From Lachnospiraceae bacterium (lineage in GTDB: Bacteria; Bacillota; Clostridia; Lachnospirales; Lachnospiraceae), in assembly GCA_024403275.1 (NCBI GenBank), contig JAKSSD010000011.1:1-49648 (forward strand): a stretch of 49,648 nt of DNA, in the 5' to 3' direction. Within the stretch, counting starts at the first letter, position 1, and each line of letters opens with the position of its first letter. The position numbers and the translations under genes are program-made. The notes under the pieces were generated by a model, which was given only the letters and a program-made list of their open reading frames with translations, made no database searches and was not told the origin of the DNA. Positions 25,084-46,530 of the stretch are shown here, one piece after another.

Positions 25084-25084
25084 A

Positions 25085-29612: not shown

Positions 29613-29624
29613 CTACATCAAAAA

Positions 29625-33132: not shown

Positions 33133-33162
33133 TAGTATCAAACCTCTCTTCTTTAAAGTAAC

Positions 33163-33261
33163 TTAGTTCTTAGTAGTATGAGCTAAAACAGAAAACGATA
33201 CATTCATTATAACTTCTTCTGTAAGTATAGCCTGTATCTTTTTGTATTTTCTTAATCTCAT
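33163..33261 (-). CDS. 32-residue microprotein ahead of the RNA polymerase gene
   Basis: ATG with AAGGAG eight bases upstream, reading MRLRKYKKIQAILTEEVI and ending HTTKN. Basic N-terminus, short hydrophobic segment. Its last codons and stop are formed by the conserved motif ACTACTAAGAACTAA (33163-33179). It may be a small peptide or a leader coupling translation to the downstream polymerase. Confidence 0.5.
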   Translation of the reverse strand: MRLRKYKKIQAILTEEVIMNVSFSVLAHTTKN

Positions 33262-33272
33262 TTGAAAACTCC

Positions 33273-33479
33273 TTAATCAAACGTTCTGCGAATCACTCTG
33301 TCTCTCCAGTTATATAAGTCATTCTTGGTCTGAAACTCAGGAATATCCATATGAATATCAAATCCATCAAACAGTTCCTTTGTATACTTAATATCAATTC
33401 TGGTCGGTGGCAGCATATCTTTTCTCTTAATAGTAGCACCGTACAAAGACCTGTCACTGCAATAATGTTTATTCTTCAT
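33273..33479 (-). CDS. Small hypothetical protein
   Basis: 68 residues, not recognised. Basic, with RIDIKYTKELFDGFDIHMDI and a C-terminal NWRDRVIRRTF. Overlaps the preceding gene by four bases, as is typical of this early operon. Confidence 0.55.
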   Translation of the reverse strand: MKNKHYCSDRSLYGATIKRKDMLPPTRIDIKYTKELFDGFDIHMDIPEFQTKNDLYNWRDRVIRRTFD

Positions 33480-33661
33480 CTCAGATACCTCTCTTCAAAT
33501 GTTTCAATTATTTCAGAATCAATAACTTCCTTTGCATACAGTAGAACGTCTGGACTCTTATGGTAGTAGTCAACAAGTTCACTCATTGACTCAAAGCTAA
33601 CAAGCTGCTCCTCAACACTGTGAATGCAAGTCTCTGGAATGTAATAAGCTTTAAATATCAT
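33476..33661 (-). CDS. Small hypothetical protein
   Basis: 61 residues, acidic and helical, not recognised. ATGA overlaps join it to both neighbours. Early leftward operon. Confidence 0.5.
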   Translation of the reverse strand: MIFKAYYIPETCIHSVEEQLVSFESMSELVDYYHKSPDVLLYAKEVIDSEIIETFEERYLR

Positions 33662-34038
33662 GGCGTAATCTCCTTTACCTTTGAATCATCAACAGGACAT
33701 ATATGTAAGAATGCATCCTGTTCCATAGTAAATATCGCATGAATATCACGACAATACATACTAACCTTGGTTGCATATATCACGACACCAGAATCGCATG
33801 AACCTAATATGTTATCAATCGTATAAGTTTCATCATAAAGATTAAACCTATCTCCAGCATTAAGTTCTACTTCATAAAGAGTAATACTTGTATCGGTATA
33901 AGGTTCATATTCTTCGATACATCTCTCTATATATTCCATATTATCTTCATTCTCATGTTTAACCGTTTCAATGGCTTCGTCTTTGCTGCGTGTAGCATAG
34001 ATTGCCATACCCTGAGAGACAAACCAATACAGCTTCAT
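33658..34038 (-). CDS. Hypothetical protein, early operon
   Basis: 126 residues from ATG 34038 (MKLYWFVSQ), which has GGAGG eight bases upstream and overlaps the previous stop as ATGA. An N-terminal domain resembles a short regulator with ATRSKDEAIETVKHEN, and the C-terminal part is beta rich. Function not recognised. Confidence 0.55.
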   Translation of the reverse strand: MKLYWFVSQGMAIYATRSKDEAIETVKHENEDNMEYIERCIEEYEPYTDTSITLYEVELNAGDRFNLYDETYTIDNILGSCDSGVVIYATKVSMYCRDIHAIFTMEQDAFLHICPVDDSKVKEITP

Positions 34039-34541
34039 ATATCCCAACCTCCAGTTTGAATTACTCTTGCATTGCCTTCATTAAGAAGTTTTGCAATAGA
34101 GTTTATGCCCATCTTATACGTGATATCCTTATATTCATGACCAAATGGAATACCAATATCTGCAAGAGTTCTCATGGCGATATCACGTTCCCACTTAATC
34201 TGAGCAACAATATCCTCAATAAACTCATCAACATTAATGAACTTGTCAAGCTTATCAAGGTAAACCCACGTACCCGGCTGATCTATTTCATTAAAATACC
34301 ATCCATAGAATTCAGTTACCGTTTTAAATGCATTGTATTCTTTCTGATTATGAATGATAATCTTATTAATATTTGTAAAGAAGTCATCATGTGAACTGAA
34401 TACAACCTCTTTATGTTCAGATGTAATGAATGTAACGTTCTTCATCTCAGGATTGATGAATGCAGCTTCGTACTCCTTACACTCAAGAGCAGTATCGAAT
34501 ACAGCACCGTCATCAGCAATATACTTAGTTACTTCAGTCAT
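34035..34541 (-). CDS. Hypothetical protein, early operon
   Basis: 168 residues. Begins VTKYIADDGAVFDTALECKE, a pattern common in small phage proteins of Clostridial phages in which a short strand hairpin is followed by a helix. The C-terminus is helical (FINVDEFIEDIVAQIKWERD). Function unknown; translationally coupled to the next gene. Confidence 0.6.
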   Translation of the reverse strand: MTEVTKYIADDGAVFDTALECKEYEAAFINPEMKNVTFITSEHKEVVFSSHDDFFTNINKIIIHNQKEYNAFKTVTEFYGWYFNEIDQPGTWVYLDKLDKFINVDEFIEDIVAQIKWERDIAMRTLADIGIPFGHEYKDITYKMGINSIAKLLNEGNARVIQTGGWDI

Positions 34542-34544
34542 AGC

Positions 34545-35186
34545 TTAGTTCTCCTTTACATTGTAAATATTAGTCTCTATACTCTGTAAGTAATACTTAT
34601 TTGTTTCTAAGCTTTTTACAACTGCCATCTCAGCACCTTCAATTTTATCAAACTTAATTAATTTATAAGGAATACCACTAATCAATTCAAAAGTATCACC
34701 CGGCTTTAAATCTTTTATTTTCTCATGAGGATTTCTAATTTCATAACCCATAAGTTTTGCATATGGTTTAACGACATCTTCTGGCTTAATCTCATATTTA
34801 CCACACGATCCAAATTCAACCTTTTCAGTAATGAAATTTATTAAAACAAATTTGCCTTCAATTAAACACGTATGGAGTTTGATGTCTTCGTTTTTCATGA
34901 ACTCATGATATATTCTGCTAACCCAATCTTCATAGGTTTCGTTGAAGTGTTCTCTTTCAGGTTCAACAAGTTCAATCTCATCGCTGTTTACCCAAGTCCA
35001 ACTTGCTGTTTTTTCATTACATTCATACTCGTATTCAATCCAGTCAACACAAATATCTAAACGAGCAGCGGTATTATCAATAGATATTACCTTACCTACC
35101 GTACCTTTAGGTGGATATGCAAACGAATCGCTCCTAACAGGTTCATCGCATATAGCTACAACCTTATCACCAGTTTTATAATGCAT
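34545..35186 (-). CDS. Hypothetical protein with SH3-like N-terminus
   Basis: 213 residues from ATG 35186 (MHYKTGDKVVAI) with AAGGAG upstream. YKTGDKV ... GTVGKVISIDN looks like an SH3/KOW-type barrel that often binds nucleic acid or protein. A second similar short strand set follows (LKPGDTFELISGIPYKLI). No catalytic motif. Function not known. Confidence 0.55.
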   Translation of the reverse strand: MHYKTGDKVVAICDEPVRSDSFAYPPKGTVGKVISIDNTAARLDICVDWIEYEYECNEKTASWTWVNSDEIELVEPEREHFNETYEDWVSRIYHEFMKNEDIKLHTCLIEGKFVLINFITEKVEFGSCGKYEIKPEDVVKPYAKLMGYEIRNPHEKIKDLKPGDTFELISGIPYKLIKFDKIEGAEMAVVKSLETNKYYLQSIETNIYNVKEN

Positions 35187-35191
35187 AAATA

Positions 35192-35767
35192 TCACTCCTT
35201 AATTTCAAGCCAATGATTCTCTTTATCAGATTCATACACAGTCTTAATCTTCTCAATAAACTTCTTAACAGCATAGCCATAGTCATCAAGATACTTGGAC
35301 TTAAATATCTTCTGAATAGTATCATCATCCAGCTTCTTCACACGTTTACTTGGAGATGTAATACCATTCTCATTTCTCCATCCTGTGCATACACCGCCGT
35401 TATGATAAATGGTAAGTGCATTCTTGCCGTAGATATTATTGTAGTAGATATTGTAAACACAAAGTCCATACTTAACAGCTAAGTCACCATATATAACTTC
35501 ATCAGTTCCATCAACATCAGTCCTGATACCGACATTGCCTGTAAGCACTTTGTACAGTTTATGTTCTCCTACGGCTTTGTAGACATACCAGTCAATGCCG
35601 AATATGTTACACATTGTATCGTCATCTCCGGCAAGAGCAACTGTTTCCTCATACCATTTAAGATTACGATACTCAGCAGGTTTATCTCCATACCAAGTAG
35701 CTACAGGATCTACATAGTAATTAAAGCTTGGATACTTATTCAGAAGTTCCGTTTCCGTTAATCTCAT
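35192..35767 (-). CDS. Hypothetical protein, early operon
   Basis: 191 residues from ATG 35767 (MRLTETELLNKYPSF), which lies inside the end of the previous gene in another frame with GGCGG upstream; a longer frame to 35878 is only the alternate reading of that gene. Aromatic-rich (NIFGIDWYVYKAVGEHKLYK). Not recognised. Confidence 0.55.
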   Translation of the reverse strand: MRLTETELLNKYPSFNYYVDPVATWYGDKPAEYRNLKWYEETVALAGDDDTMCNIFGIDWYVYKAVGEHKLYKVLTGNVGIRTDVDGTDEVIYGDLAVKYGLCVYNIYYNNIYGKNALTIYHNGGVCTGWRNENGITSPSKRVKKLDDDTIQKIFKSKYLDDYGYAVKKFIEKIKTVYESDKENHWLEIKE

Positions 35768-35921
35768 ATTCACAACCGCCTTCCTCTTCAAAGTAATGAC
35801 CGCATAAGTAACAGCCATGTTTCCATTTCTGAATACACTCATAACAATTCTCATCATGAGTGAACGCCGGGTCACCACAGTTGTAGGATGATGACCATAT
35901 ACACCAAAACTTGTCGCACAT
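35736..35921 (-). CDS. Small cysteine-rich protein
   Basis: 61 residues with eight cysteines (CDKFWC, CGD, CYEC, CYLCGHYF, GGC), likely binding one or two zinc ions. It overlaps the start of the next gene by 32 bases. Not recognised; probably a small regulatory or host-interaction protein. Confidence 0.6.
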   Translation of the reverse strand: MCDKFWCIWSSSYNCGDPAFTHDENCYECIQKWKHGCYLCGHYFEEEGGCEYEINGNGTSE

Positions 35922-35925
35922 AGAA

Positions 35926-36144
35926 TTATACCTTATTCAGATTAGCTCTCTCATGACACTTATCACATTCAATCTCTATGAGCTGCACAGAGCCATAGTC
36001 AGAGATGTGATAACTAAAATTCCTGTTACCGCAACAGGTATAGTGTTTGTGCTTGAAGTTCTGCCACGTAATCTTCTCTGATGGAGAGAAGAGGTACAGG
36101 ATGTGGTCTTTTAAATCTGAGATATCGTTATTGTTCTTTTGCAT
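35926..36144 (-). CDS. Small zinc-ribbon protein, first gene of the leftward operon
   Basis: 72 residues. CCG and CDKC, about 26 residues apart, suggest a zinc ribbon. Preceded by GAGAGGA and about 75 bases downstream of the leftward promoter, so it is likely the first protein expressed leftward. Function unknown. Confidence 0.6.
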   Translation of the reverse strand: MQKNNNDISDLKDHILYLFSPSEKITWQNFKHKHYTCCGNRNFSYHISDYGSVQLIEIECDKCHERANLNKV

Positions 36145-36162
36145 TGAGTATCATTCCTCTCA

Positions 36163-36247
36163 TTAGTTCTTAGTAGTATATATAATAGTATAGAGGACTT
36201 AATTAGTCCTTAGTATTATGATACCATATAAGTATGGGTTTTGTCAA
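36163..36247 (-). promoter_or_regulatory. Leftward promoter with two TACTAAG motif copies
   Basis: Minus strand: TTGACA (36247-36242), 18 bases, TATCAT (36223-36218). Directly downstream come two copies of the repeated motif, ATACTAAGGACTAA (36217-36203) and ATACTACTAAGAACTAA (36179-36163). Between them GGACTTAATTAGTCC can fold as a small hairpin in the transcript leader. It should drive the leftward early operon. Confidence 0.7.
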
Positions 36248-36650
36248 TAGGGAAGTTGTAATTTAAGGGGATTATAGTCTGGAGATACTATATATAATAG
36301 TATATAACGGGGTTGGGGAATATTATAATAGTACAGGTCAGGAAATATAGTGTGTATAAAGTGTATTTTAAGGGGCAGGGGTAGGAGTGTTTAGAATTGC
36401 TGTAGGGGCGATGACTGGATTGTTATGGAGTACTACCACCAAACGAAGGCCTTCCCGGCACACGTTCCGTGACAACATACCCCCGGTCAAGATTCCGTCA
36501 GATGCGGTAAACACGTGCATCAGGGCAGGTCAGGCAGCAGATCCACCTCCTGCATTTACTTAAATTAAATTTAAGCTTTTAAAGTTGGCTTCCTTCAAAA
36601 AACGACTTTAATTTTTCGTATACCCTGCAGGGGTATATTTTTTCAATGAT

Positions 36651-36785
36651 TTTTCCTTTGGTTTATTTACTCTAATGTACATTCATTTTCTTTGGAGTAA
36701 ATCAACTAAACAATATTCATTCTCTTTGGTTTATTTCATTCATTGAAAGATATTCCTTTGGTTAATTCACTCCAATGAATTGTAA
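36651..36785. repeat. Four iteron-like repeats
   Basis: CTTTGG cores start at 36656, 36690, 36724 and 36756, spaced 34, 34 and 32 bases. The extended unit is about YCTTTGGTTWATTYACTCNAATG; the second copy has GAGTAAATC after the core. Regular spacing near three helical turns in an AT-rich segment is typical of replication initiator or regulator binding sites. Confidence 0.68.
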
Positions 36786-37082
36786 ATAAACTATGAATAT
36801 TTGTATAAAATGAAAAAAGTGATTTGTATTCTTTTTATTGCAAAACGATATTGATATATTTCAAAATAATATATTCATATTGTTTTGGATAAAGTCACGG
36901 CAGTTGTTCAGGGTATACCCGGCAGCAAAACAAACTTTTCCGATACTGCATAATATAGTATACTTATCTGATATTTTCCGGCCTGATATCATTAAAAACC
37001 CTTGTAAACATCGGTAAAACCTACATTTAAGACTATTTAAACTTTTTCAATGCCGTATAATATAGTATATGCTATAAAAATA

Positions 37083-37136
37083 TTTTAGAAAATTTTCTAA
37101 AAAAGTGTTGACAACTAATTTAGTTCGTAGTATAAT
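37083..37136 (+). promoter_or_regulatory. Strong rightward promoter with palindromic operator
   Basis: Perfect consensus TTGACA (37108-37113), 17-base spacer, TATAAT (37131-37136). A perfect 20-base palindrome with arms TTTTAGAAAA / TTTTCTAAAA sits at 37083-37102, five bases before the -35. The spacer also contains a reverse-oriented copy of the TACTA motif (37120-37133). It drives the right-arm operon. Confidence 0.85.
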
Positions 37137-37208
37137 GTTAGACAAGGGAAGGGATAAAACCCACATACACCCATATACTACCATTATGATTTTTTAGGAG
37201 GAATTCTT

Positions 37209-38333
37209 ATGAAAAAAACTATCGAATTTATTTACAGAAACAAGGCCGGAAAACTTATGAATACTCAGACAATCGGCAGCCGCTTAATAAATGCAGTTGT
37301 AGCTAATACAATTGAAGAAGGTACAGAAACAAACGTTGTAGTTTATAAAGTTCCTGAATACACATTCACAACTGACGAACTCGGTACAATAACAATAGCT
37401 CATACATACACCGAAGAAGACGGGGATATAATCTATCACGTTTCATGCAACTATCATGATATTGAATGTATGCAGTGTGAACTTTCAAAGGCAATAACAA
37501 TGTGCTTTGAATATCTTATGCAGGCGGCCGAAGAAATGGCAGCTGAAGAAGCTGAAGTTATGCAGGAAATTGAAGCTGAAGAAATGCAGGAAGCCCCGGA
37601 AGCTATTGAAAATGAAATAGTTGAAACTGTTGAAACTGAAGACGGGGATATCTACATAATCGAAACAAACAAGGGATATCAAGGAAACATTGAAACTTAT
37701 TTACTGAAGAAAAACGGCAGAATAATATATGAGTCATACAACCTGAATGAAGTGTTAAACTATATGAACGGCCGTATATATGCCGGAGACATTCAACAAA
37801 AATACACTTCAGCAAATACCAGTATAAACGATAAGAAAATCCCGGTTGTATTTTCTACCCTGATTAATAAGGCCGATAAACTTAATATCCGCTTAGATAT
37901 GACAAGTATATTTGATACGGGCTGTGGAAAATATATAAACCACATTAAAGAATATTGCAGCAAAAATCTTATTAGATATTTTGGCCGGGATAAATACAAT
38001 CAACCTGAAGAAGTAAATAATGCATGGATAAATGATATTTACGGAGTATACTTGAATGATGATAATCACATATTTACAAGTAGTAATGTGCTTAATGTGA
38101 TTAAAGGTGAAAACTGCCGTAAACAGTATATAAACGATATAGTCAAGTATATGCAGGCCGGGGAAAAGTTATACATTACAGTATTTGAAGGCAATAAGTC
38201 CGGCCGGGGAAAAGTTACAAAAAAAGACTGTTGGCAGGAAAACAGAAAACTTGCAACTTATATCCCTGAAGTTAAAAACTGCGGATTCTCTGAAGTTACT
38301 ATGAAATATGGTATGATTATAGCAACTTTATAA
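37209..38333 (+). CDS. Methyltransferase-like protein with acidic linker
   Basis: 374 residues, first gene of the rightward operon, with AGGAGG upstream. Residues 1-105 are an uncharacterised N-terminal domain, 105-145 a Glu/Ala-rich acidic linker, and 210-374 resemble a Rossmann-type SAM methyltransferase: IFDTGCGKY (234-242, motif I), an acidic residue at 261 after the next strand, and SSNVLNVI (291-298, motif IV position). VFEGNKSGRGKVTKKD follows. The usual catalytic DPPY is absent, so target and activity are unknown. DNA, RNA or protein modification are all possible. Confidence 0.6.
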   Translation: MKKTIEFIYRNKAGKLMNTQTIGSRLINAVVANTIEEGTETNVVVYKVPEYTFTTDELGTITIAHTYTEEDGDIIYHVSCNYHDIECMQCELSKAITMCFEYLMQAAEEMAAEEAEVMQEIEAEEMQEAPEAIENEIVETVETEDGDIYIIETNKGYQGNIETYLLKKNGRIIYESYNLNEVLNYMNGRIYAGDIQQKYTSANTSINDKKIPVVFSTLINKADKLNIRLDMTSIFDTGCGKYINHIKEYCSKNLIRYFGRDKYNQPEEVNNAWINDIYGVYLNDDNHIFTSSNVLNVIKGENCRKQYINDIVKYMQAGEKLYITVFEGNKSGRGKVTKKDCWQENRKLATYIPEVKNCGFSEVTMKYGMIIATL

Positions 38334-38347
38334 TACTAAACACTAAA
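38333..38347 (+). promoter_or_regulatory. TACTAAG motif copy
   Basis: ATACTAAACACTAAA directly after the stop codon at 38333, preceded by TATAAT. Oriented rightward like the operon. Confidence 0.6.
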
Positions 38348-38360
38348 TTAATACATACAA

Positions 38361-38380
38361 CCGGGGGATAATTCCCCCGG
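38361..38380 (+). other. GC-rich intergenic hairpin
   Basis: CCGGGGGA / TTCCCCCGG, 8-bp stem with a TAAT loop, between the first gene and the next ribosome binding site. No T tract follows, so it is not a standard terminator. Confidence 0.7.
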
Positions 38381-38419
38381 AGTAAATACAAACATTGTTA
38401 CATAGTAGGAGGAATTATT

Positions 38420-38584
38420 ATGAAAAAGAATATTATAGCTGAAGCAGTAAAAAGAACATATGCAGATATCAACAGAATAAACGGTTATATTAAGTATACC
38501 CGTAACAACTCATACGGCTTTACGGCAAAATTTGAAGCTTCAAACAATAACCCGGAAAACATGTTTACTATTGAAATATTCTAA
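38420..38584 (+). CDS. 54-residue hypothetical protein
   Basis: ATG with AGGAGG nine bases upstream, reading MKKNIIAEAVKRTYADINRI and ending MFTIEIF. Uninterrupted and between two well spaced genes. Predicted strand-helix-strand. Not recognised. Confidence 0.7.
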   Translation: MKKNIIAEAVKRTYADINRINGYIKYTRNNSYGFTAKFEASNNNPENMFTIEIF

Positions 38585-38600
38585 TACATAACCCACATAC

Positions 38601-38636
38601 AACCCCGGAAGGCCGGAAGAACTCCGGCCGGGGGTT
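38601..38636 (+). other. GC-rich intergenic hairpin
   Basis: AACCCC...GGGGTT enclosing GGCCGGA / TCCGGCC with a small internal loop; over ten base pairs. It ends 17 bases before the next AGGAGG and lacks a T tract. Confidence 0.7.
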
Positions 38637-38668
38637 ATAACCTGATAACACAATAGGAGGCGTATATT

Positions 38669-39076
38669 ATGAAAAAATTCACTGGTAAAATTCAGGCCGT
38701 AAAGGATAAAACGGCGGCTTATATATTATCACTCTTAATATGTGATGATAGTCAAAAATGGATTATTGAGCATGAAATAAAAGATCTCATTTCTAACATG
38801 CGTATACATGATATATCAGTTTATCACGCTTGTAATTATGGTATTCAGTTTGATATTACATATACGGAAGCCGAATATAAAAACGGCAGCTTAAAAGCTG
38901 AAGTTACAATTGACAACGTATGCACTGGCAATATTGAAATACACGACAAAATAACCGGGGCTATACTGGAGGCCGGAAGCCCTGACATAATTGATAAATA
39001 CAACCCTGATAATATCAGTGTATTCTATGAGAAAATAGATAAATGGGATCTGGATTTTATCCCGTATTCAGTATAA
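38669..39076 (+). CDS. Hypothetical protein, right-arm operon
   Basis: 135 residues with AGGAGG upstream. N-terminal helix (KFTGKIQAVKDKTAAYILSL), then beta strands with YGIQFDITYTEAEYK. Not recognised. Its neighbours are all small accessory genes separated by GC-rich hairpins. Confidence 0.65.
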   Translation: MKKFTGKIQAVKDKTAAYILSLLICDDSQKWIIEHEIKDLISNMRIHDISVYHACNYGIQFDITYTEAEYKNGSLKAEVTIDNVCTGNIEIHDKITGAILEAGSPDIIDKYNPDNISVFYEKIDKWDLDFIPYSV

Positions 39077-39085
39077 TACATAATC

Positions 39086-39118
39086 GGCCGGAGTCCGGGG
39101 ATAATTCCCCGGAAGGCC
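39086..39118 (+). other. GC-rich intergenic hairpin
   Basis: TCCGGGGA / TTCCCCGGA with loop TAAT, flanked by GGCC / GGCC that can extend the stem. Same design and nearly the same loop as the hairpin at 38361. Confidence 0.7.
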
Positions 39119-39153
39119 TGAACAATAATACATATTTTCGGAGGATAAATATT

Positions 39154-39546
39154 ATGAAAAAATTAACATCTATTATTACAATAATTAGCATCATGGCCGG
39201 AAGTTCAGGAAATACATATTTTCAGTCTTTTGAAGACATATATCCGGAAACTGCTATAATTACAGAAACAAATCAGGAAACTGATATTGTAACTGTTGAA
39301 ACTTTAAACGGAAACTTATTCCAGTTTTACGGGGTTGAAGACTATACAACCGGGGATATTGTTTCCATGATAATGGATTCTAACAAAACGGAAGCCGTAA
39401 ACGATGATATAATTTTATCCGTAAAGTATAGCGGATATATCCCGGAAACAACCCCGGAAGAAGTCCCGGAAGTTGAAACAACCCCGGAAGCGGATCTGTT
39501 TATGGAATATCTGGAAGCTATTGAAAACGGAAGCTATAACGAATAA
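39154..39546 (+). CDS. Small protein with possible signal peptide
   Basis: 130 residues from ATG 39154, which has GGAGG upstream; an upstream extension to 39043 overlaps the previous gene and is rejected. Residues 1-20 (MKKLTSIITIISIMAGSSG) look like a short secretion signal. The core (DIVTVETLNGNLFQFYGVED) forms strands and the C-terminus is a Pro/Glu/Thr-rich tail. Similar small exported proteins are common in Clostridial mobile elements. Function unknown. Confidence 0.62.
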   Translation: MKKLTSIITIISIMAGSSGNTYFQSFEDIYPETAIITETNQETDIVTVETLNGNLFQFYGVEDYTTGDIVSMIMDSNKTEAVNDDIILSVKYSGYIPETTPEEVPEVETTPEADLFMEYLEAIENGSYNE

Positions 39547-39561
39547 TAGGAGGCGGAAATT

Positions 39562-39909
39562 ATGATTAATCTTGTATTATGGAACTTAAAAACTAAGAAG
39601 GGTATAAACGTTATTGAAAAAAGAACCCCGGCAGGGATTGAAAAATCTATATCCGTAAACGGCCGTACATTTACAAGTCCTGACGATATCAGGAAAATAT
39701 ATAAACTTATTCAGGAAGCCGAAAATATCAATAAAAGCGTTTTTGCGGAAGATATTGCAACCATTAAAGCGGAGGCCGACTTCCACAATATTGATTTTGA
39801 GGAAGTCCTCAAGGATTATCTTGTTGCGATAGATGAATATGTAGCTTATTACATGTATCAGGAAGCGGAAGAAAACTATATTGACTTGCATAATCGCTGC
39901 CCGGTTTAA
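39562..39909 (+). CDS. Hypothetical protein, right-arm operon
   Basis: 115 residues with AGGAGG upstream. Two-part: a beta N-terminus (NLVLWNLKTKKGINVIEKRT) and an acidic helical C-terminus (KAEADFHNIDFEEVLKDYLV). Not recognised. Confidence 0.62.
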   Translation: MINLVLWNLKTKKGINVIEKRTPAGIEKSISVNGRTFTSPDDIRKIYKLIQEAENINKSVFAEDIATIKAEADFHNIDFEEVLKDYLVAIDEYVAYYMYQEAEENYIDLHNRCPV

Positions 39910-39928
39910 TAATTACATATATCAGGAA

Positions 39929-39958
39929 GGCCGGGACTTGTAAACAGTCCCGGAGGCC
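39929..39958 (+). other. GC-rich intergenic hairpin
   Basis: CCGGGACT / AGTCCCGG with a seven-base loop, flanked by GG...CC. Lies after the gene ending 39909 and before the next promoter. Confidence 0.65.
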
Positions 39959-39978
39959 TGAACAATAACATAAAAATA

Positions 39979-40057
39979 TTTTAGAATATTTTCTAAAATC
40001 CTATTGACAAATAGAAAATAATATGCTATTATATTAACAGATAGAAAATATTCTATC
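39979..40057 (+). promoter_or_regulatory. Internal rightward promoter with two operators
   Basis: TTGACA (40004-40009), 17 bases, TATTAT (40027-40032). Upstream palindrome with arms TTTTAGAA / TTCTAAAA at 39979-39998, again five bases before the -35. Downstream palindrome GATAGAA / TTCTATC at 40040-40057, at the likely transcription start. This bracketed layout suggests repression by a dimeric regulator. Confidence 0.82.
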
Positions 40058-40099
40058 AAACGGAAGCCCACAATTAATACATATCAGGAGGAAACAATT

Positions 40100-40474
40100 A
40101 TGAAAACTATGAAAACAGCTTATTTTTTCGGAAACAAAGTCAGTGAATACGGCCTTGAAAATGGTTATGTAGATTATAGCACACTTGCTAAGTCATTTGA
40201 TGCAGTACTGAACAATGATATCATGGCCAAAATCGGATTTGAAAACTTTGAACTAGTAAACGGCAGTGACTACAATGATGAAACAGATGAATACACTGAA
40301 ATATACCAGTGTTACATTATTTCAGATGCAGGACTCCAGATCCTTCAGGACTACACTGATGAAATTGTTTACAGATCGGAAGATTATGACCTGAATATCT
40401 GGTGTGTAACACACTATGGTACAGGCTGGACTCACGTACTCACAAATATTGAAATTAACCCGGAAGAAGAATGA
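40100..40474 (+). CDS. Hypothetical protein under its own promoter
   Basis: 124 residues with AGGAGG upstream. Acidic, aromatic-rich, with YFFGNKVSEYGLENGYVDYS and YNDETDEYTEIYQCYIIS. It is the first gene after the promoter at 40004, so it is probably separately regulated. Reminiscent of small phage proteins of unknown function with antirestriction-like acidity, but no family is recognised. Confidence 0.62.
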   Translation: MKTMKTAYFFGNKVSEYGLENGYVDYSTLAKSFDAVLNNDIMAKIGFENFELVNGSDYNDETDEYTEIYQCYIISDAGLQILQDYTDEIVYRSEDYDLNIWCVTHYGTGWTHVLTNIEINPEEE

Positions 40475-40491
40475 TTCAGGAGGCGTAAATT

Positions 40492-40533
40492 ATGAAATAC
40501 TCTAAACTGAAAATTAATCTTTATAAACAATAG
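40492..40533 (+). CDS. 13-residue micro-ORF
   Basis: ATG with AGGAGGCG upstream encodes MKYSKLKINLYKQ and then TAG. It starts like the next gene (MKYFRVK), so it may be a remnant of a duplicated gene start or a leader peptide. Directly followed by a TACTAAG motif copy. Confidence 0.35.
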   Translation: MKYSKLKINLYKQ

Positions 40534-40535
40534 CT

Positions 40536-40552
40536 ATACTACTAAACACTAA
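40536..40552 (+). promoter_or_regulatory. TACTAAG motif copy
   Basis: ATACTACTAAACACTAA following a TATACT hexamer, three bases after the micro-ORF stop. No good -35 is visible upstream. Confidence 0.6.
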
Positions 40553-40601
40553 ATTGATTAATCGGAAGCCGGAAACAAACAGATTTTAGGAGGAATAAAT
40601 T

Positions 40602-40811
40602 ATGAAATACTTTAGAGTAAAACCTGAATACGACAACAAAATGCGTATATCAACAAAAGGAAGAAATGAAGGTATTTATGTAGCTAATGAACTTTATACG
40701 GAAGCAGAACTGAAAAAGTATAGAGTATGCAATATCTTTGAAGCTGTCGATATTCCGAAAACAAATACATACTGGTTTTTTGGAGCAAGATTTGAAAGTC
40801 AGGAGGCCTGA
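40602..40811 (+). CDS. Small hypothetical protein
   Basis: 69 residues with AGGAGG upstream. Basic, reading MKYFRVKPEYDNKMR and ending FFGARFESQEA. Strands with a helix; not recognised. Confidence 0.6.
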   Translation: MKYFRVKPEYDNKMRISTKGRNEGIYVANELYTEAELKKYRVCNIFEAVDIPKTNTYWFFGARFESQEA

Positions 40812-40814
40812 AAC

Positions 40815-40913
40815 ATGAATTTTATAATGCTTTGTATCGGAGTTCTTGCAACCATAGCAGCGGCAATAGTTGACTTCTGGAATAATTCCGGGGGATCTGG
40901 TTTACTAATGTAA
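40815..40913 (+). CDS. 32-residue single-span membrane peptide
   Basis: ATG with CAGGAGG upstream (which overlaps the previous stop), encoding MNFIMLCIGVLATIAAAIVD followed by a short Gly/Ser tail. One clear hydrophobic span. Could be a small membrane effector or regulator. Confidence 0.6.
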   Translation: MNFIMLCIGVLATIAAAIVDFWNNSGGSGLLM

Positions 40914-40932
40914 TGAAACGGAGGCGGAAACT

Positions 40933-41076
40933 ATGAAAAGATTAATACTTGAATTCAGGTTAAACAGACTTGACAAACAGATTAAACAACAACAGAAGGC
41001 CGGAAATGTTTATAAGGCCTATGAACTATCACTTATCAGATTTGAATTATCACATAAATTACTTAACAATTATTAA
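40933..41076 (+). CDS. 47-residue helical protein
   Basis: ATG with GGAGGCGG upstream. MKRLILEFRLNRLDKQIKQQ and LSLIRFELSHKLLNNY form two amphipathic basic helices, like a small DNA- or RNA-binding helical hairpin. Not recognised. Confidence 0.6.
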   Translation: MKRLILEFRLNRLDKQIKQQQKAGNVYKAYELSLIRFELSHKLLNNY

Positions 41077-41105
41077 TACATATAATCGGAAGCGGAAAAC
41101 AATAG

Positions 41106-41124
41106 TCCCGGCATAATGCCGGGA
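41106..41124 (+). other. GC-rich intergenic hairpin
   Basis: TCCCGGCA / TGCCGGGA, 8-bp perfect stem with a TAA loop, just before AGGAGG of the gene at 41145. No T tract. Confidence 0.7.
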
Positions 41125-41144
41125 AACATTAGGAGGATAAAATT

Positions 41145-41372
41145 ATGAAAACAAAAAGATTTGTATATGAATACGCAAACGGGAAGTTAAAAGAATTCAA
41201 TGATAACCCGGCAATGCAGGACTGTTACAAACAGGAAGCGAAAAGGAATATTGAAATAGTGATTCAACAATGTGAATATGGTTACATTTCAATTGATGAA
41301 TGTATCAGAAAAATTTCAGATCCTTTTATCATTGACGTAAATACAGGTGAAACAATATTACATAACAATTAA
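41145..41372 (+). CDS. Small hypothetical protein
   Basis: 75 residues with AGGAGG upstream. Helical middle (MQDCYKQEAKRNIEIVIQQC). Not recognised. Confidence 0.6.
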   Translation: MKTKRFVYEYANGKLKEFNDNPAMQDCYKQEAKRNIEIVIQQCEYGYISIDECIRKISDPFIIDVNTGETILHNN

Positions 41373-41431
41373 TCGGAAACAAAACAAGCTGAACTATCAG
41401 GCTATACGGGTACAATCTGGAGGAATAAACT

Positions 41432-41653
41432 ATGAAAAAACATACATACAGAATTGACTATGATATTAAGACAAATGGAAGTCAGTACGGCCGGAGGCTA
41501 TATGTAAAAGCTGATACGGCAAAGGAAGCGAAAGAAGTATTTAAGAATACAACAAACGGAAAATGCTTTTATAATTCTGATTGTCACGCCTTCCATGTGG
41601 AAATACATCAGGCCGATAATGAAATAATCACTGAACAGTACGATATAATTTAA
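41432..41653 (+). CDS. Small hypothetical protein
   Basis: 73 residues with GGAGG upstream. YRIDYDIKTNGSQYGRRLYV, a helix AKEAKEVFKNT and a final strand give a small alpha/beta pattern shared with phage proteins that process surface or RNA ligands, but no family is recognised. Confidence 0.6.
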   Translation: MKKHTYRIDYDIKTNGSQYGRRLYVKADTAKEAKEVFKNTTNGKCFYNSDCHAFHVEIHQADNEIITEQYDII

Positions 41654-41729
41654 TTAGAAATTATTCTAAAAAGTATTGACAGATAGAATATTATATGCTA
41701 TACTGAATACAGTTAGAAAATATTCTATC
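41654..41729 (+). promoter_or_regulatory. Internal rightward promoter with two operators
   Basis: TTGACA (41676-41681), 17 bases, TATACT (41699-41704). Operators TTAGAA / TTCTAA at 41654-41669 upstream and TAGAA / TTCTA at 41712-41729 downstream. Same architecture as the promoter at 40004, and likely controlled by the same regulator. Confidence 0.82.
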
Positions 41730-41756
41730 TGCAATACATGAAACGGAGGATAAATT

Positions 41757-42005
41757 ATGTATACTACAGAACAAATCAAATCAATAATTGGAACTTCAAA
41801 AACAAAGTCAACCATTGAATCTAAACTGAAAAAAGCAAATGTAAAATTTAACTATGATTCGGAAGAAAAAGAGTTCAAAATCAATAACCCGGATGGATCT
41901 GTAATAAGAATATACAAGTCAGTATATAAAGAAATTAAAGTGTTACATATGCAGCCGTTTAAAATGCAGTATTCAGGAACACCAGTATTTTTTGGAAGCT
42001 TATAA
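41757..42005 (+). CDS. Small hypothetical protein under its own promoter
   Basis: 82 residues with GGAGG upstream. Lysine-rich helical N-terminus (IKSIIGTSKTKSTIESKLKK) followed by strands (VIRIYKSVYKEIKVL). First gene after the promoter at 41676. Not recognised. Confidence 0.62.
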   Translation: MYTTEQIKSIIGTSKTKSTIESKLKKANVKFNYDSEEKEFKINNPDGSVIRIYKSVYKEIKVLHMQPFKMQYSGTPVFFGSL

Positions 42006-42022
42006 TTAAGGAGGCATGAATT

Positions 42023-42217
42023 ATGGAAGACAATGTACATGTAGTAGGAATTGACAAAGGAACTGGATACATAGTAGCTTGCACAAATTGTGGCAGATCC
42101 GATGCGGAAGCTTTTGCAAAATACTATAGAAAAATCGGATACAATGCACGAATAGTCACTGAAGAAGTTCTTGATTATATGTTAGAGCAGGAACGTCAGG
42201 AACGAAAATTATATTAA
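42023..42217 (+). CDS. Small hypothetical protein
   Basis: 64 residues with GGAGG upstream. Strand-helix pattern with CTNCGRSDAEAFAKYYRKIG; two cysteines in CTNC could bind metal. Not recognised. Confidence 0.6.
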   Translation: MEDNVHVVGIDKGTGYIVACTNCGRSDAEAFAKYYRKIGYNARIVTEEVLDYMLEQERQERKLY

Positions 42218-42228
42218 TACATACAGCA

Positions 42229-42258
42229 TCCGGGTATAAGTTTAGGCCTATACCCGGA
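42229..42258 (+). other. GC-rich intergenic hairpin
   Basis: TCCGGGTATA / TATACCCGGA, a perfect 10-bp stem with a ten-base loop, just before the ribosome binding site of the gene at 42279. Confidence 0.7.
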
Positions 42259-42278
42259 AGTAAAACGGGGGATAAATT

Positions 42279-42518
42279 ATGTTAATACAGACACTTGACT
42301 ATCTTGTTAATGAAGTAGTTGAAATTGATGATGCTGATATTCAGGCCATAGAAAAGATAGATAACGAATTCAGTATAATCTGGAATTCAGACGGCCTTGC
42401 TTATCAGGTAACAAACAAATTCTTATCAGATATTGGCATTCTGGAAACAGAATCTGAATCAGATAATTTTTACAAACAGTTTATAGACAGAAACGGAAAT
42501 GTAATTTTACCATTCTAA
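42279..42518 (+). CDS. Small acidic hypothetical protein
   Basis: 79 residues; GGGGGAT serves as ribosome site. Very acidic (EVVEIDDADIQAIEKIDNEF), ending with strands. Not recognised. Confidence 0.6.
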   Translation: MLIQTLDYLVNEVVEIDDADIQAIEKIDNEFSIIWNSDGLAYQVTNKFLSDIGILETESESDNFYKQFIDRNGNVILPF

Positions 42519-42531
42519 GGAGGAACTAATT

Positions 42532-42672
42532 ATGATGTACATTACAGTTTATGATGTGGAAGCTGAAGAACTTGAAAAGCTTGCTGAAGACAATGACACA
42601 ACTATTGCAGAGATAGTTGAAATGCTTATGGAATACAAAGACGATATGAAAAGAGAATTTAATTTACAATAG
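42532..42672 (+). CDS. 46-residue protein, possible ribbon-helix-helix
   Basis: AGGAGG upstream. MMYITVYDVEAEELEKLAED, then NDTTIAEIVEMLMEYKDDMK, fit the strand-helix-helix layout of CopG/Arc-type DNA-binding proteins, which bind palindromes as dimers. It is a candidate for the regulator of the palindromic operators nearby. The strand lacks strong basic residues, so this is tentative. Confidence 0.55.
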   Translation: MMYITVYDVEAEELEKLAEDNDTTIAEIVEMLMEYKDDMKREFNLQ

Positions 42673-42684
42673 GAGGCAGGAACT

Positions 42685-42840
42685 ATGAATGAACTAAAAA
42701 AATACATACTTAATCATTGGCCTTCAGAAAATCTTGAATCAGAAATAATTTATGCTTATGATAAAATGGATGCTTTAGATAAAGCATTAGATTGTGAAGG
42801 ACATATATACGAACTTATTGAAGTAGGAGGCCGGGCTTAA
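42685..42840 (+). CDS. 51-residue hypothetical protein
   Basis: ATG with AGGAGG upstream. MNELKKYILNHWPSENLESE, acidic and helical. Its last codons (GGRA and stop) lie within the hairpin at 42831-42848. Confidence 0.6.
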   Translation: MNELKKYILNHWPSENLESEIIYAYDKMDALDKALDCEGHIYELIEVGGRA

Positions 42841-42879
42841 ATGCCCGGTTATAATCAACAGTATACTACTAAGCACTAA
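42831..42879 (+). promoter_or_regulatory. GC-rich hairpin plus TACTAAG motif copy
   Basis: Hairpin CCGGGC / GCCCGG at 42831-42848 overlapping a stop codon, followed by a motif copy ATACTACTAAGCACTAA at 42863-42879. The two repeated elements occur together here, as they do after the first gene of the operon. Confidence 0.62.
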
Positions 42880-42900
42880 GCATATTCGGAGGATGATTAT

Positions 42901-43158
42901 ATGAATATAACAAACAAAGACTATCAGGCCATACAGAACTTAATCAGTGTTGTATCAGGCCATTTAGATGAACTTGATGTTCTGGAAGCTGAATACTACA
43001 TTGAATGTGTTCAGATGATGCAGAGACTGGAAGAGAAACGGAAACAAGATAATGAACGCAGGTACAAACTTATCTCCGAAAAGAGAAAATCAGATCCGAA
43101 CTATGCCAGAACCCTGAATGAGAACGGAAAACAGAAAAGCTATTCTAAAAAGAAGTAA
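42901..43158 (+). CDS. Hypothetical helical protein
   Basis: 85 residues with GGAGG upstream. N-terminal helices (YQAIQNLISVVSGHLDELDV), then a coiled coil and a very basic C-terminus ending KSYSKKK. Possibly nucleic-acid binding. Not recognised. Confidence 0.6.
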   Translation: MNITNKDYQAIQNLISVVSGHLDELDVLEAEYYIECVQMMQRLEEKRKQDNERRYKLISEKRKSDPNYARTLNENGKQKSYSKKK

Positions 43159-43171
43159 AGGAGAATGTTCT

Positions 43172-43504
43172 ATGCCATGGAAGTCAGAAAAGATTAAGCT
43201 GCCGGAAGAATACGACAGACGATGTAAACTAACATCAGATCAGCGTGAAAAGATTAAGGAACTATATGCAACCGGGTTATACTCTTTACGCCAGCTTGGA
43301 ATGGAATTCGGAGTTGATAAAAGCTACATCTCATTGTTAGTTAATCCTGACCGGGCAGCAAAAGTTAAGGCCAATAGGAAGGCCAATGCAGAACGATACA
43401 AAGTTGATAAGGAAGAACGCAACAGAATCATGCGTGAATACAGACAGCGGAAACAGAGATTATATCTGGAAGGGAAGATTGGAAATGAAACTGACAAACA
43501 GTAA
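43172..43504 (+). CDS. Helix-turn-helix protein
   Basis: 110 residues from ATG 43172 (MPWKSEKIKL) with AAAGGAG upstream. The segment REKIKELYATGLYSLRQLGM with FGVDKSYIS is a homeodomain-like helix-turn-helix as in resolvase or sigma-70 region 4 type proteins. The C-terminus is highly basic. It probably binds DNA as a regulator. It overlaps the next gene by 20 bases in a different frame. Confidence 0.65.
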   Translation: MPWKSEKIKLPEEYDRRCKLTSDQREKIKELYATGLYSLRQLGMEFGVDKSYISLLVNPDRAAKVKANRKANAERYKVDKEERNRIMREYRQRKQRLYLEGKIGNETDKQ

Positions 43505-43832
43505 AGTATATGATGATGCTATAAATGATAATCTATATGGAAGAATACATGATATTAGTGATACATGGATAGAGAATGTACTTGTAAATGACGAATGGAA
43601 GATGGTAGGCTTCCAGAAGGTTGATGCCAGATGTTTTATACTAATTGGAACTAGGAACTGGGCTACTAAATATACAGCAATGAATCTGCATGAAGCTATA
43701 TGTTCTGAAACATGGTATGAAGTTGATAAAGCGGAAGGGAATAGCATTTACAACAAGATTCTCAAGTCAAAACGTACATCCAAAAAAGGAAAAGAGTATT
43801 ACATATTTAAATTTACGGAGGTAGAATCATGA
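43485..43832 (+). CDS. Hypothetical protein
   Basis: 115 residues from ATG 43485 (MKLTNSKVYDDAIND) with GAAGGGA upstream; the longer frame overlaps the helix-turn-helix gene. Rich in aromatic residues (GTRNWATKYTAMNLHEAICS). Ends with an ATGA overlap to the next gene. Not recognised. Confidence 0.6.
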   Translation: MKLTNSKVYDDAINDNLYGRIHDISDTWIENVLVNDEWKMVGFQKVDARCFILIGTRNWATKYTAMNLHEAICSETWYEVDKAEGNSIYNKILKSKRTSKKGKEYYIFKFTEVES

Positions 43833-44266
43833 AAGTAGTATGCGGAAGTTATTATGTACACAAGTCAAACCTGAATGAACTGTTTAACAAAGTTCAGGAT
43901 AAGGATCTGGAAGTCCTTATACAACAAACAGATGTTGACTATGATGTTGTCAAGTATGACAAAGGGAACGTAACCCTGATTAAAGCATCGGACTGGGATA
44001 CAGCAAACGAACCATTAATAGACTACACTGTACTCTTTAAGGTCGGAAGCTTATCTGAACCCGGTGTAAAGCGTATGAATGGAAGACAGATATATCACAA
44101 CAAATGGATGTTTGTTAGTCCTGACTACACTGGATTTGATGTAGAGGAAGCTAAGGAACGTACTGCAATATGGAATTCAATTCCTGATATTAAATCCCAT
44201 AAGAGCAGAATCGGAAACAAAACATACTGGGTAGAACTTCTGAACCAGTACAACATACCAGTGTAA
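43829..44266 (+). CDS. Hypothetical protein
   Basis: 145 residues with GGAGG upstream and an ATGA overlap. Alternating strands, YYVHKSNLNELFNKVQDKDL then VNRMNGRQIYHNK-like loop region; not recognised. Small accessory gene of the right arm. Confidence 0.6.
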   Translation: MKVVCGSYYVHKSNLNELFNKVQDKDLEVLIQQTDVDYDVVKYDKGNVTLIKASDWDTANEPLIDYTVLFKVGSLSEPGVKRMNGRQIYHNKWMFVSPDYTGFDVEEAKERTAIWNSIPDIKSHKSRIGNKTYWVELLNQYNIPV

Positions 44267-44279
44267 AGGAGATAGAATT

Positions 44280-44498
44280 ATGTTTACATCAGCAGAGATT
44301 ATTACATATCAAGTGACTACATTAGTATTAGCTAAGTTCTTTATATCAATAGCGGAGAATGTATTTCCGGCAATAGTTAAAGGCCTTAAGTATATCGGAC
44401 TAGGTATAGTCTGGATGATTATATTCCTTCTCAGAGTGTCAGAGTTGCTGCCGGAACTGGATTATAACTACTCATCACGAAGAAGAATATTGACTTGA
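44280..44498 (+). CDS. Small membrane protein
   Basis: 72 residues with AAAGGAG upstream. Two hydrophobic segments (VTTLVLAKFFISIA and YIGLGIVWMIIFLL) and a basic C-terminus, so probably two spans with both ends in the cytoplasm. Function unknown. It may be a holin-like or regulatory membrane protein, but no lysis genes are nearby. Confidence 0.55.
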   Translation: MFTSAEIITYQVTTLVLAKFFISIAENVFPAIVKGLKYIGLGIVWMIIFLLRVSELLPELDYNYSSRRRILT

Positions 44499-44517
44499 CT
44501 CCGTAAGGAGGCAAAGG

Positions 44518-44595
44518 ATGAACTTGTTTCATCCTATATGTTCCGATAGGAACACAATCCCTGAGATAAAAGTAGTAGAGTTCAGTAGAGTATAG
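44518..44595 (+). CDS. 25-residue micro-ORF
   Basis: ATG with AAGGAGG upstream encodes MNLFHPICSDRNTIPEIKVV and ends before the promoter at 44608. The good ribosome site supports it, but length and lack of comparisons keep it tentative. Confidence 0.4.
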   Translation: MNLFHPICSDRNTIPEIKVVEFSRV

Positions 44596-44607
44596 TAAAA
44601 GTTTTTC

Positions 44608-44691
44608 TTGACAAACTGAAGTCTATATGATATTATATTACTAAGGACTAATGAAGTCCTAAATTAAAAACAGTATATTACTATGAACTAA
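44608..44691 (+). promoter_or_regulatory. Rightward promoter with two TACTAAG motif copies
   Basis: TTGACA (44608-44613), 17 bases, TATTAT (44631-44636). The first transcribed bases hold ATTACTAAGGACTAA (44637-44651), and AGGACT / AGTCCT can form a small hairpin. A second copy, ATTACTATGAACTAA, is at 44677-44691. The layout mirrors the leftward promoter at 36242. Confidence 0.8.
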
Positions 44692-44712
44692 TTTAATGAA
44701 AGGGTGATTCAG

Positions 44713-45003
44713 ATGACATTCAAAGACAGAATCAGAAACAGTAAGCATCCTGTAACTGACATCTCAAACATGTTCAGGGAAGTAATGAGTAGTCTTGAGA
44801 TGGAAGTTAAACCGGGAATTGAACGTGTAGTTGAGACTAATAACTACTCTAAGCTCAGGGATTATCTCAAGACTGGTAAGACTCATGCGAATATGATAAC
44901 AGCTATGATAGTTACTGTAGCTCTTGAGACTGGAAGTAAACCTGTAGCAACTCCGATTATACATGATAAAGTATTAGAAGTATTGGACTTAGATTTGGCA
45001 TAG
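44713..45003 (+). CDS. Hypothetical protein under its own promoter
   Basis: 96 residues from ATG 44713 (MTFKDRIRNSK) with AAAGGG upstream. Helical throughout (MFREVMSSLEMEVKPGIERV). Single-gene transcription unit between a strong promoter and a terminator, which suggests a regulatory or high-level product. Not recognised. Confidence 0.65.
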   Translation: MTFKDRIRNSKHPVTDISNMFREVMSSLEMEVKPGIERVVETNNYSKLRDYLKTGKTHANMITAMIVTVALETGSKPVATPIIHDKVLEVLDLDLA

Positions 45004-45061
45004 CTTGCTATGCATGAGCCAGCTAAAGCTGTCTTTGTGCTGACGCACAAGTCTTTTTCTT
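45003..45061 (+). terminator. Three hairpins ending in an intrinsic terminator
   Basis: After the stop codon come GCT-TGC-TAT-GCA-AGC, CAGC / GCTG (45020-45031) and TTGTGC / GCACAA (45035-45050), then GTCTTTTTCTT. It ends the unit started at 44608. The string of three small hairpins before AAGTCTTTTT resembles the array at 29406. Confidence 0.75.
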
Positions 45062-45064
45062 ATA

Positions 45065-45078
45065 ATACTAAGAGCTAA
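45065..45078 (+). promoter_or_regulatory. TACTAAG motif copy
   Basis: ATACTAAGAGCTAA preceded by TATA, four bases past the terminator T tract. A possible start of the next transcript toward the helicase gene. Confidence 0.55.
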
Positions 45079-46421: not shown

Positions 46422-46530
46422 TGAGATATTAAGTCTTACTATTGCAAGGGATAACAGGGTCGCAAAATGGCGAACCATTATTTGGAAGAATCAAGAATGA
46501 TTGAATAACAATTTGGAGGTTAAACAAACT

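What the first reader, a model, noticed from the sequence alone, without database searches (positions are those of the whole stretch)
33163..45078. Directional repeated motif TATAMTACTAAGNACTAA confined to the early region
Ten copies: 33163-33179, 36163-36179, 36203-36219 and 37120-37133 read on the minus strand; 38333-38347, 40536-40552, 42863-42879, 44637-44651, 44677-44691 and 45065-45078 read on the plus strand. Each shares TACTAxRxxCTAA, usually after a TATA-like hexamer. All copies left of 37.14 kb point left and all to the right point right, so the element is directional. Three copies abut or overlap consensus sigma-A promoters (36242, 37108, 44608). It could be a promoter for the phage two-barrel RNA polymerase, an initially transcribed regulatory sequence, or a polar operator. 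I did not see clear copies in the structural arm, which argues for early or middle use.
Basis: partly seen in the sequence, partly recalled or inferred. Interest (0 to 1): 0.85.

Follow-up and report, generated by a model that had tools for sequence, protein, structure and literature searches.

The report
Polar operator array of SPβ-like phage
A bacterial virus related to SPβ carries ten copies of a one-way 18-base signal at the starts of its early genes, most likely the landing sites of the repressor that keeps it dormant; relatives place signals of other sequence at matching spots.

Summary
All ten copies exist. Nine match TATANTACTAAGNACTAA with at most one mismatch, the tenth with three; in the 2.47-Mb assembly no other contig has a match that close to nine of them. 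Copies left of 37.14 kb point left, the rest right.

'Polar operator' fits better than 'phage-polymerase promoter'. The window is an SPβ-like phage (yonO-type polymerase, yonV homologue, yomM-like recombinase). In SPβ the repeated element SPBRE is the ChAP-seq-mapped operator of the master repressor MrpR. My de novo search shows SPBRE is polar too, on SigA promoters and hard against ribosome-binding sites. The window repeats this layout: a promoter copy with a partner 40 bp on, twice, and a copy just before the polymerase gene.

φ3T, Perkons and two yonV-bearing phages each have another such element, though word choice favoured polarity in some.

Best explanation: operators of an MrpR-type repressor that block initiation at promoters and probably elongation inside operons, like mycobacteriophage stoperators. 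The repressor gene is not in the window, and no binding or elongation block is shown here.

The parts
33163..33180 (-). copy 1, solitary; 21 nt before the first TTG of the two-barrel RNA polymerase frame (30 nt before the second, which has the better-spaced RBS)
36163..36180 (-). copy 2; 18 nt before ATG 36144, 40 bp downstream of copy 3
36203..36220 (-). copy 3; overlaps the last 3 bases of the -10 box of the leftward SigA promoter
37120..37137 (-). copy 4; in the -35/-10 spacer and -10 box of the rightward SigA promoter, antiparallel to it; weakest copy (3 mismatches)
38329..38346 (+). copy 5, solitary, over the stop codon of ORF 37209-38333
40535..40552 (+). copy 6, solitary, 49 nt before ATG 40602
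42862..42879 (+). copy 7, solitary, 21 nt before ATG 42901
44634..44651 (+). copy 8; same register on a SigA promoter as copy 3
44674..44691 (+). copy 9; 40 bp downstream of copy 8, 21 nt before ATG 44713
45061..45078 (+). copy 10, solitary, 116 nt before the yonV homologue
36218..36247 (-). SigA-type promoter of the leftward operon (TTGACA-18-TATCAT)
37108..37136 (+). SigA-type promoter of the rightward operon (TTGACA-17-TATAAT)
44608..44636 (+). SigA-type promoter (TTGACA-17-TATTAT)
30415..33141 (-). two-barrel RNA polymerase, yonO type (PF05183; 28% to SPBc2 YonO over 42% of its length)
45195..46421 (+). yonV homologue (42% to SPBc2 YonV)
24058..25092 (-). tyrosine recombinase, yomM-like, in the late arm; not MrpR-like by sequence

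Best explanation
The ten copies are the operators of the prophage's master repressor, equivalent in role and layout to the SPβ element SPBRE and probably bound by an MrpR (YopR)-type protein, a tyrosine-recombinase fold that reads an asymmetric site. Copies on the SigA promoters at 36247, 37108 and 44608 would block initiation. Solitary copies and second copies inside operons, four of them about 20 nt before a start codon, would block host RNA polymerase already in elongation, as stoperators do in mycobacteriophage L5; that would explain why copies follow the direction of transcription. The leftward operon would be clamped twice, at its promoter and just before the phage polymerase gene, so the whole late arm stays silent without operators of its own. 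Shown: copies, polarity, promoter overlap, SPβ relationship, and the same kind of layout with other sequences in relatives. Inferred: that a repressor binds here, its class, and the elongation block.
For: Ten copies far above chance, confined to this contig. The phage is SPβ-like: yonO-type RNAP, yonV homologue 42%, yomM-like recombinase 31%, exonuclease, terminase. SPBRE is the ChAP-seq-mapped MrpR site, ten peaks, yonP and yonX among them. De novo with both strands open, 9 of the 10 listed SPβ genes carry one element upstream, in sense orientation; the tenth, yorM, has it 27 nt inside the annotated start. Of 11 genome copies at 3 mismatches of 21, all follow their arm; they lie on promoters and against RBSs such as those of yopM and yonX. 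φ3T, whose MrpR is 29.5% identical to SPβ's, has another element, 26 copies at 1 mismatch, all following their arm, including copies before yonO and yonP. Perkons 12 of 12, a Clostridioides phage 15 of 15 and contig L088 11 of 11 switch strand at one point, for the words chosen. Copies 3 and 8 overlap their -10 box in the same register and each has a partner exactly 40 bp on. None of the 7 copies away from a promoter has a -35 match of 4 of 6 or better.
Against: No MrpR homologue found: none on this contig and only weak phrog_5830 matches in the assembly (best E 6e-4, also a PF00589 recombinase). The contig ends 3.2 kb past yonV; in SPBc2 yopR starts 12.8 kb past it. The motif is unrelated to SPBRE (0 hits at 3 mismatches). 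Copy 4 is antiparallel to its promoter. The Clostridioides phage has a polar element but no hit to MrpR or to the RNAP, so such elements need not go with MrpR. Several φ3T copies precede TTGAC-like words, an odd place for simple occlusion. SPβ keeps 7 φ3T-type copies, all plus; 6 are not at genes listed as MrpR peaks, so an RBS-adjacent polar element need not be an MrpR site. Looser cut-offs blur the polarity: SPBRE 15-mer at 2 mismatches adds minus sites at 12577, 40129 and 134077; φ3T at 2 mismatches adds sites on both strands; two other Perkons words give one exception each (10 of 11, 12 of 13); the Clostridioides word at 2 mismatches gives 47 matches on both strands against 16.4 in shuffles. 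The φ3T word was sought on sense strands only, and the Clostridioides, Perkons and L088 words were picked with orientation counts in view. Polarity alone is weak: RBS words are polar too. RNAP relatives at 40-47% identity show no such motif before the RNAP gene.
Confidence: 0.7

Rival explanations
1. Promoters of the phage two-barrel RNA polymerase: the enzyme starts at TATAMTACTAAG and drives early or middle genes and its own gene.
For: 18-bp contiguous, directional motif just upstream of genes, one before the RNAP gene itself; the 7 copies away from SigA promoters have no -35 box. The promoter sequence of YonO was unknown in 2017.
Against: YonO serves the late arm in SPβ, where the window has no copy at 2 mismatches or fewer. 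SPBRE, the counterpart, binds MrpR and is absent from the yonK-yonN interval. Two copies sit on strong SigA promoters in the same direction. RNAP relatives do not share a motif at the RNAP gene.
Confidence: 0.12
2. Sites for an activator, antiterminator or other DNA-binding regulator of early or middle genes rather than the lysogeny repressor.
For: Copies lie within early operons and before RBSs. SPβ keeps φ3T-type copies mostly away from the listed MrpR genes, so a second polar system may exist. The Clostridioides phage has a polar element without a detected MrpR. A separate palindrome marks the other early promoters.
Against: MrpR at SPBRE represses: promoter fusions are five-fold lower with it. 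Copies 3, 4 and 8 overlap the -10 or spacer of strong promoters, a repressing position.
Confidence: 0.11
3. An RNA-level leader element (translation or mRNA stability) read in the transcript.
For: Polarity and closeness to ribosome-binding sites; a GGACT...AGTCC inverted repeat follows copies 3 and 8.
Against: Copies 3 and 8 overlap the -10 box, so their first bases would not be transcribed from those promoters; copy 4 lies upstream of the expected start of its promoter. In SPβ several copies lie between a -35-like and a -10-like box.
Confidence: 0.06

Closest known systems
SPBRE, operator of MrpR (YopR), Bacillus phage SPβ
   Same: SPβ-like phage; one short AT-rich polar element; on SigA promoters and beside RBSs; at the operon leading to yonO; early arm, not late arm
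   Different: Unrelated sequence; several SPβ copies lie between -35 and -10, here copies 3 and 8 lie at -10/+1; repressor unknown and binding not shown here
Stoperators of mycobacteriophage L5 and cluster A phages
   Same: Asymmetric short sites, in promoters and in short intergenic gaps, oriented with transcription
   Different: L5-type repressor is a small protein with HTH and stoperator domains; L5 sites lie throughout the genome; sequence unrelated (recalled consensus); elongation block untested here
YonO-dependent late promoter of SPβ (upstream of yonK)
   Same: A two-barrel RNAP is encoded beside the elements
   Different: The YonO start maps upstream of yonK in SPβ; the yonK-yonN interval has no SPBRE

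Membership tests
SPBRE/MrpR operator system | Host phage is SPβ-like (yonO, yonV, late-arm genes) | tested here: met
SPBRE/MrpR operator system | One repeated polar element at promoters and before RBSs in the early arm | tested here: met
SPBRE/MrpR operator system | SPBRE consensus sequence | tested here: not met
   0 hits at 3 mismatches in the window; φ3T, with a diverged MrpR, also has only 1
SPBRE/MrpR operator system | Encoded MrpR homologue | tested here: inconclusive
   window recombinase is yomM-like; only weak hits in the assembly; contig ends before the expected place
SPBRE/MrpR operator system | Repressor binds the element | not testable with these tools
   needs EMSA or ChAP-seq
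Cluster A stoperator system | Asymmetric sites oriented with transcription, also inside operons | tested here: met
   9 of 10 copies precede a same-strand gene within 120 nt; copy 4 does not and is antiparallel to its promoter
Cluster A stoperator system | L5 consensus site (recalled) | tested here: not met
   1 hit at 2 mismatches in the window, 1-4 in each of the other five genomes or pieces
Cluster A stoperator system | Repressor blocks elongation, orientation-dependent | not testable with these tools
   needs reporter assays
Promoter of two-barrel phage RNAP | Copies ahead of the late genes served by the polymerase | tested here: not met
   no copy in the late arm except a 3-mismatch match inside a probable intron; copy 1 lies before the RNAP gene, upstream of the late arm
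Promoter of two-barrel phage RNAP | Transcripts start at the motif | not testable with these tools
   needs 5'-end mapping

The most novel reading that the evidence does not exclude
SPβ-like phages as a group silence their prophage with polar operator arrays that act as stoperators, evolved independently of the mycobacteriophage system and read by a recombinase-fold protein. Each phage has a private element sequence that defines an immunity group, and mixed arrays (SPβ carries 11 SPBRE copies and 7 φ3T-type copies) record past changes of immunity.
Probability: 0.35. Interest if true: 0.75.

Novelty: new member of a known kind. Interest (0 to 1): 0.5.

Why it matters
It places an uncultured phage's regulatory code by layout rather than by sequence, and suggests that SPBRE-type elements are a fast-diverging immunity code in SPβ-like phages. 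It also makes a testable claim that MrpR-type repressors stop elongating polymerase: several SPβ copies sit at ribosome-binding sites rather than at recognisable promoters.

Tried and rejected
Conservation of the exact motif: 12 viral contigs with one exact match each, four of them inside tandem ACTAAGAAC repeats; best weight-matrix score in the 20 RNAP loci L005-L024 is 11.7, against 21.4 or more for the window copies; no second genome with a cluster of copies among 30 other genus genomes (2 mismatches, at most 3 per genome, on different contigs) or 396 other family genomes (1 mismatch, single matches in 21). In what is held the motif is private to this phage.

A repeated motif before the RNAP gene of relatives: 16 of the 20 loci tried (L009, L011, L012, L014 left out as partial); best was an AT-rich word with 6 non-coding matches in L024. 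Whole-locus word counts gave mostly AT-rich, low-complexity words. The blind motif finder ranked RBS-like or low-complexity words first in the window, SPBc2 and the Clostridioides phage; the window motif came second, a form of the Clostridioides element second, and SPBRE was not in its top four. SPBRE was recovered when the search was restricted to the published target genes.

Closer relatives by the terminase (7 loci, 46-57%): 3-mismatch matches in 5 of 7 records, at the level of the reversed-pattern control. By the yonV homologue: in L088 one core match with 1 mismatch, in L090 one with 2, no array. ORF 37209-38333: no relative in viral contigs; terminase and ORF 44704-45003: none in phages. 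The window recombinase as the repressor: rejected, yomM-like and no MrpR match.

Of the comparison elements, some 1-mismatch Clostridioides copies look coding and may be chance; L088 is a 21-kb piece of a 164-kb contig. The late promoter of the phage polymerase was not found; the gap 29434-29659 is a candidate only. The host was not identified.
Full report
OBSERVATION. The ten copies are real. TATAMTACTAAGNACTAA with up to three mismatches matches 11 places against 1.06 expected (100 dinucleotide shuffles, largest 4); with N for M the mean is 2.0 in 5 local shuffles. A weight matrix separates the ten (21.4-27.4) from the rest of the window (nothing else at 9 or more). The loose core with one mismatch is not enriched (14 against 11.5), so the case rests on the full motif. 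In the assembly (2.47 Mb, 179 contigs) all matches with at most one mismatch are on this contig. The left group reads minus and the right group plus. An eleventh, 3-mismatch match at 16405 lies in a probable group I intron of the capsid region (Rfam RF00028, 42.3 bits against a gathering score of 50, E 5e-9 in a search of 1.6 kb; not listed at the gathering threshold) and is at chance level.

SURROUNDINGS. The SigA consensus scan (at most one mismatch in all) gave ten sites: 36247 (minus), 37108, 40004, 41676 and 44608 in the early region, and 49035, 13878, 12850, 11658 and 7437 (all minus) elsewhere, which I did not follow. Copies 3 and 8 overlap the last three bases of the -10 box at 36247 and 44608 in the same register, and each has a second copy exactly 40 bp further on, just before an RBS. 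Copy 4 lies across the spacer and -10 box of 37108, antiparallel. The other five are solitary, 21 to 116 nt before a gene. None of the seven copies away from promoters has a -35 match of 4 of 6 or better; 15% of random positions do. Distances of 18-21 nt to a start codon recur in 36163, 42862, 44674 and, if the first TTG is the start, 33163 (30 nt if the second). The two remaining rightward early promoters carry another element, the palindrome TAGAAAATWTTCTA, which also stands upstream of 37108.

WHAT THE PHAGE IS. The 908-aa protein at 30415-33141 matches PF05183 and, at 28-38% identity, YonO-family proteins of SPβ and Enterocloster phages. The gene after copy 10 is a yonV homologue (42.1% to SPBc2). 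The late arm has exonuclease, terminase and a recombinase that is yomM-like (31%, E 2e-26) and not MrpR-like. The window is therefore an SPβ-like phage, cut off 3.2 kb beyond yonV. Its host was not identified.

SPβ COMPARISON. In SPβ, MrpR (YopR), a protein with a recombinase fold, is the master repressor; [quoted passage not shown] abstract, outline and passages). I derived the element de novo from the upstream regions of those ten genes with both strands open: 9 of 10 share it in sense orientation; the yorM copy lies at 110908, inside the annotated start. At 3 mismatches of 21 there are 11 copies, 1 minus (yonP) and 10 plus (right arm), all with their arm. The 15-mer at 2 mismatches adds minus sites at 63897, 40129, 12577 and 134077, the last two against their arm. 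Several copies sit between a -35-like and a -10-like box, others at RBSs (yopM, yopV, second yonX copy). The pair at yonX (68706 and 68770) resembles the 40-bp pairs of the window. The site at 63897 lies just before yonO (2 mismatches of 15, 5 of 21) but is not among the reported peaks. The YonO-dependent start lies upstream of yonK (PMC5467207, passages); the interval between yonK and yonN holds no SPBRE even at 6 mismatches. I did not convert the published start coordinate.

OTHER PHAGES. φ3T, whose MrpR homologue is 29.5% identical to SPβ's, has AGAATAAAAATAAAAT, 26 copies at 1 mismatch: 3 minus at yonO and yonP, 23 plus to the right. At 2 mismatches of the 15-mer a few sites break this (for example 35612 plus and 123382 minus). 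Perkons (RNAP and MrpR homologues) has TATAATTAAGTT, 12 exact copies, 3 minus and 9 plus by arm, one of them in the late arm; two longer words gave 11 and 13 matches with one exception each, and the blind finder 43 of 55 co-oriented with the next predicted ORF. The Clostridioides phage, linked only by yonV (no RNAP hit, no MrpR hit), has TAAACTAAATAAAAT, 15 copies at 1 mismatch: 9 minus left of 67 kb, 6 plus right of it; at 2 mismatches there are 47 on both strands against 16.4 in shuffles. L088, a 21-kb piece found through its yonV homologue, has 11 copies of TTAATAAATAAATATANGT at 2 mismatches, 2 minus at the left end and 9 plus; at 4 mismatches 29 of 33 are plus. Dinucleotide shuffles (20 each) give means of 0 to 1.05 for the words used. 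The cross table is nearly diagonal, except that SPβ carries 7 φ3T-type copies, all plus, 5 of them directly before an RBS and one beside the SPBRE of yosX. Choice of words: SPBRE was found with both strands open; the φ3T word was sought on the sense strand of 11 upstream regions; the Clostridioides, Perkons and L088 words were picked with orientation counts in view. Shuffle and polarity figures are therefore optimistic for the last four.

MECHANISM. Asymmetric operators read by a monomer, which follow transcription and also sit in intergenic gaps, are known from mycobacteriophage L5, where reversing a site abolishes repression (PMC9283540, abstract and passages). MrpR elutes as a monomer and has a recombinase fold, which fits an asymmetric half-site. 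I therefore propose that the window's copies are operators at promoters and roadblocks inside operons. This explains the double clamp on the operon of the phage polymerase and the absence from the late arm. The words roadblock, elongation and stoperator do not occur in the main text of the MrpR paper, and no held paper has both SPbeta and stoperator (open-licence PMC papers only), so the elongation idea for SPβ appears untested in what I could search.

WEAK POINTS. No repressor is identified and binding is untested. The motif is unrelated to SPBRE by sequence. Copy 4 is antiparallel. φ3T copies before TTGAC-like words and the φ3T-type copies in SPβ are not explained by simple promoter occlusion. 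The Clostridioides phage shows such an element without a detected MrpR. RNAP relatives at 40-47% identity show no such element before their RNAP gene (16 loci, three with identical upstream DNA).

Noticed in passing
37086-37099, 39982-39995, 40042-40055, 41655-41668, 41714-41727: Palindrome TAGAAAATWTTCTA (one copy with 1 mismatch) upstream of promoter 37108 and on both sides of promoters 40004 and 41676, about 60 bp apart: probably a second, dimeric regulator of the early region.
   Followed up: partly
16251-16589 minus: Probable group I intron (RF00028, E 5e-9, below gathering score) in the capsid-region gene.
   Followed up: partly
29625-29660 minus: Tandem 20-bp repeat with AAACGTGGACAAATCA, followed by a hairpin, in the gap after the polymerase and its neighbour gene; candidate late promoter region; no match at 1 mismatch in the loci held.
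   Followed up: partly
46501-47430: BRO-N / antirepressor-like protein with a C-terminal HNH-family match, next to the yonV homologue; candidate anti-repressor.
   Followed up: no
L007:2195-5985, L008:4476-8266, L010:10001-13791: The RNAP gene match spans 3.8 kb instead of 2.7 kb, so an insert (intron or intein) may interrupt it; five of six Enterocloster phage records show spans of 3.4-3.6 kb in 2-3 pieces.
   Followed up: no
SPBc2 (NC_001884) 90637, 113683, 119409, 120659, 128335, 129180, 132766: SPβ holds seven φ3T-type elements, all plus, five directly before an RBS: relics of another immunity or a second polar system.
   Followed up: partly
G000:C5 (3009 bases): Three tyrosine recombinase genes in tandem on a small contig of the same assembly.
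   Followed up: no
36250-37108: About 860 bp without ORFs of 60 aa between the divergent operons, with repeated CTTTGGTTTATTTCA-like words; may be a replication origin.
   Followed up: no
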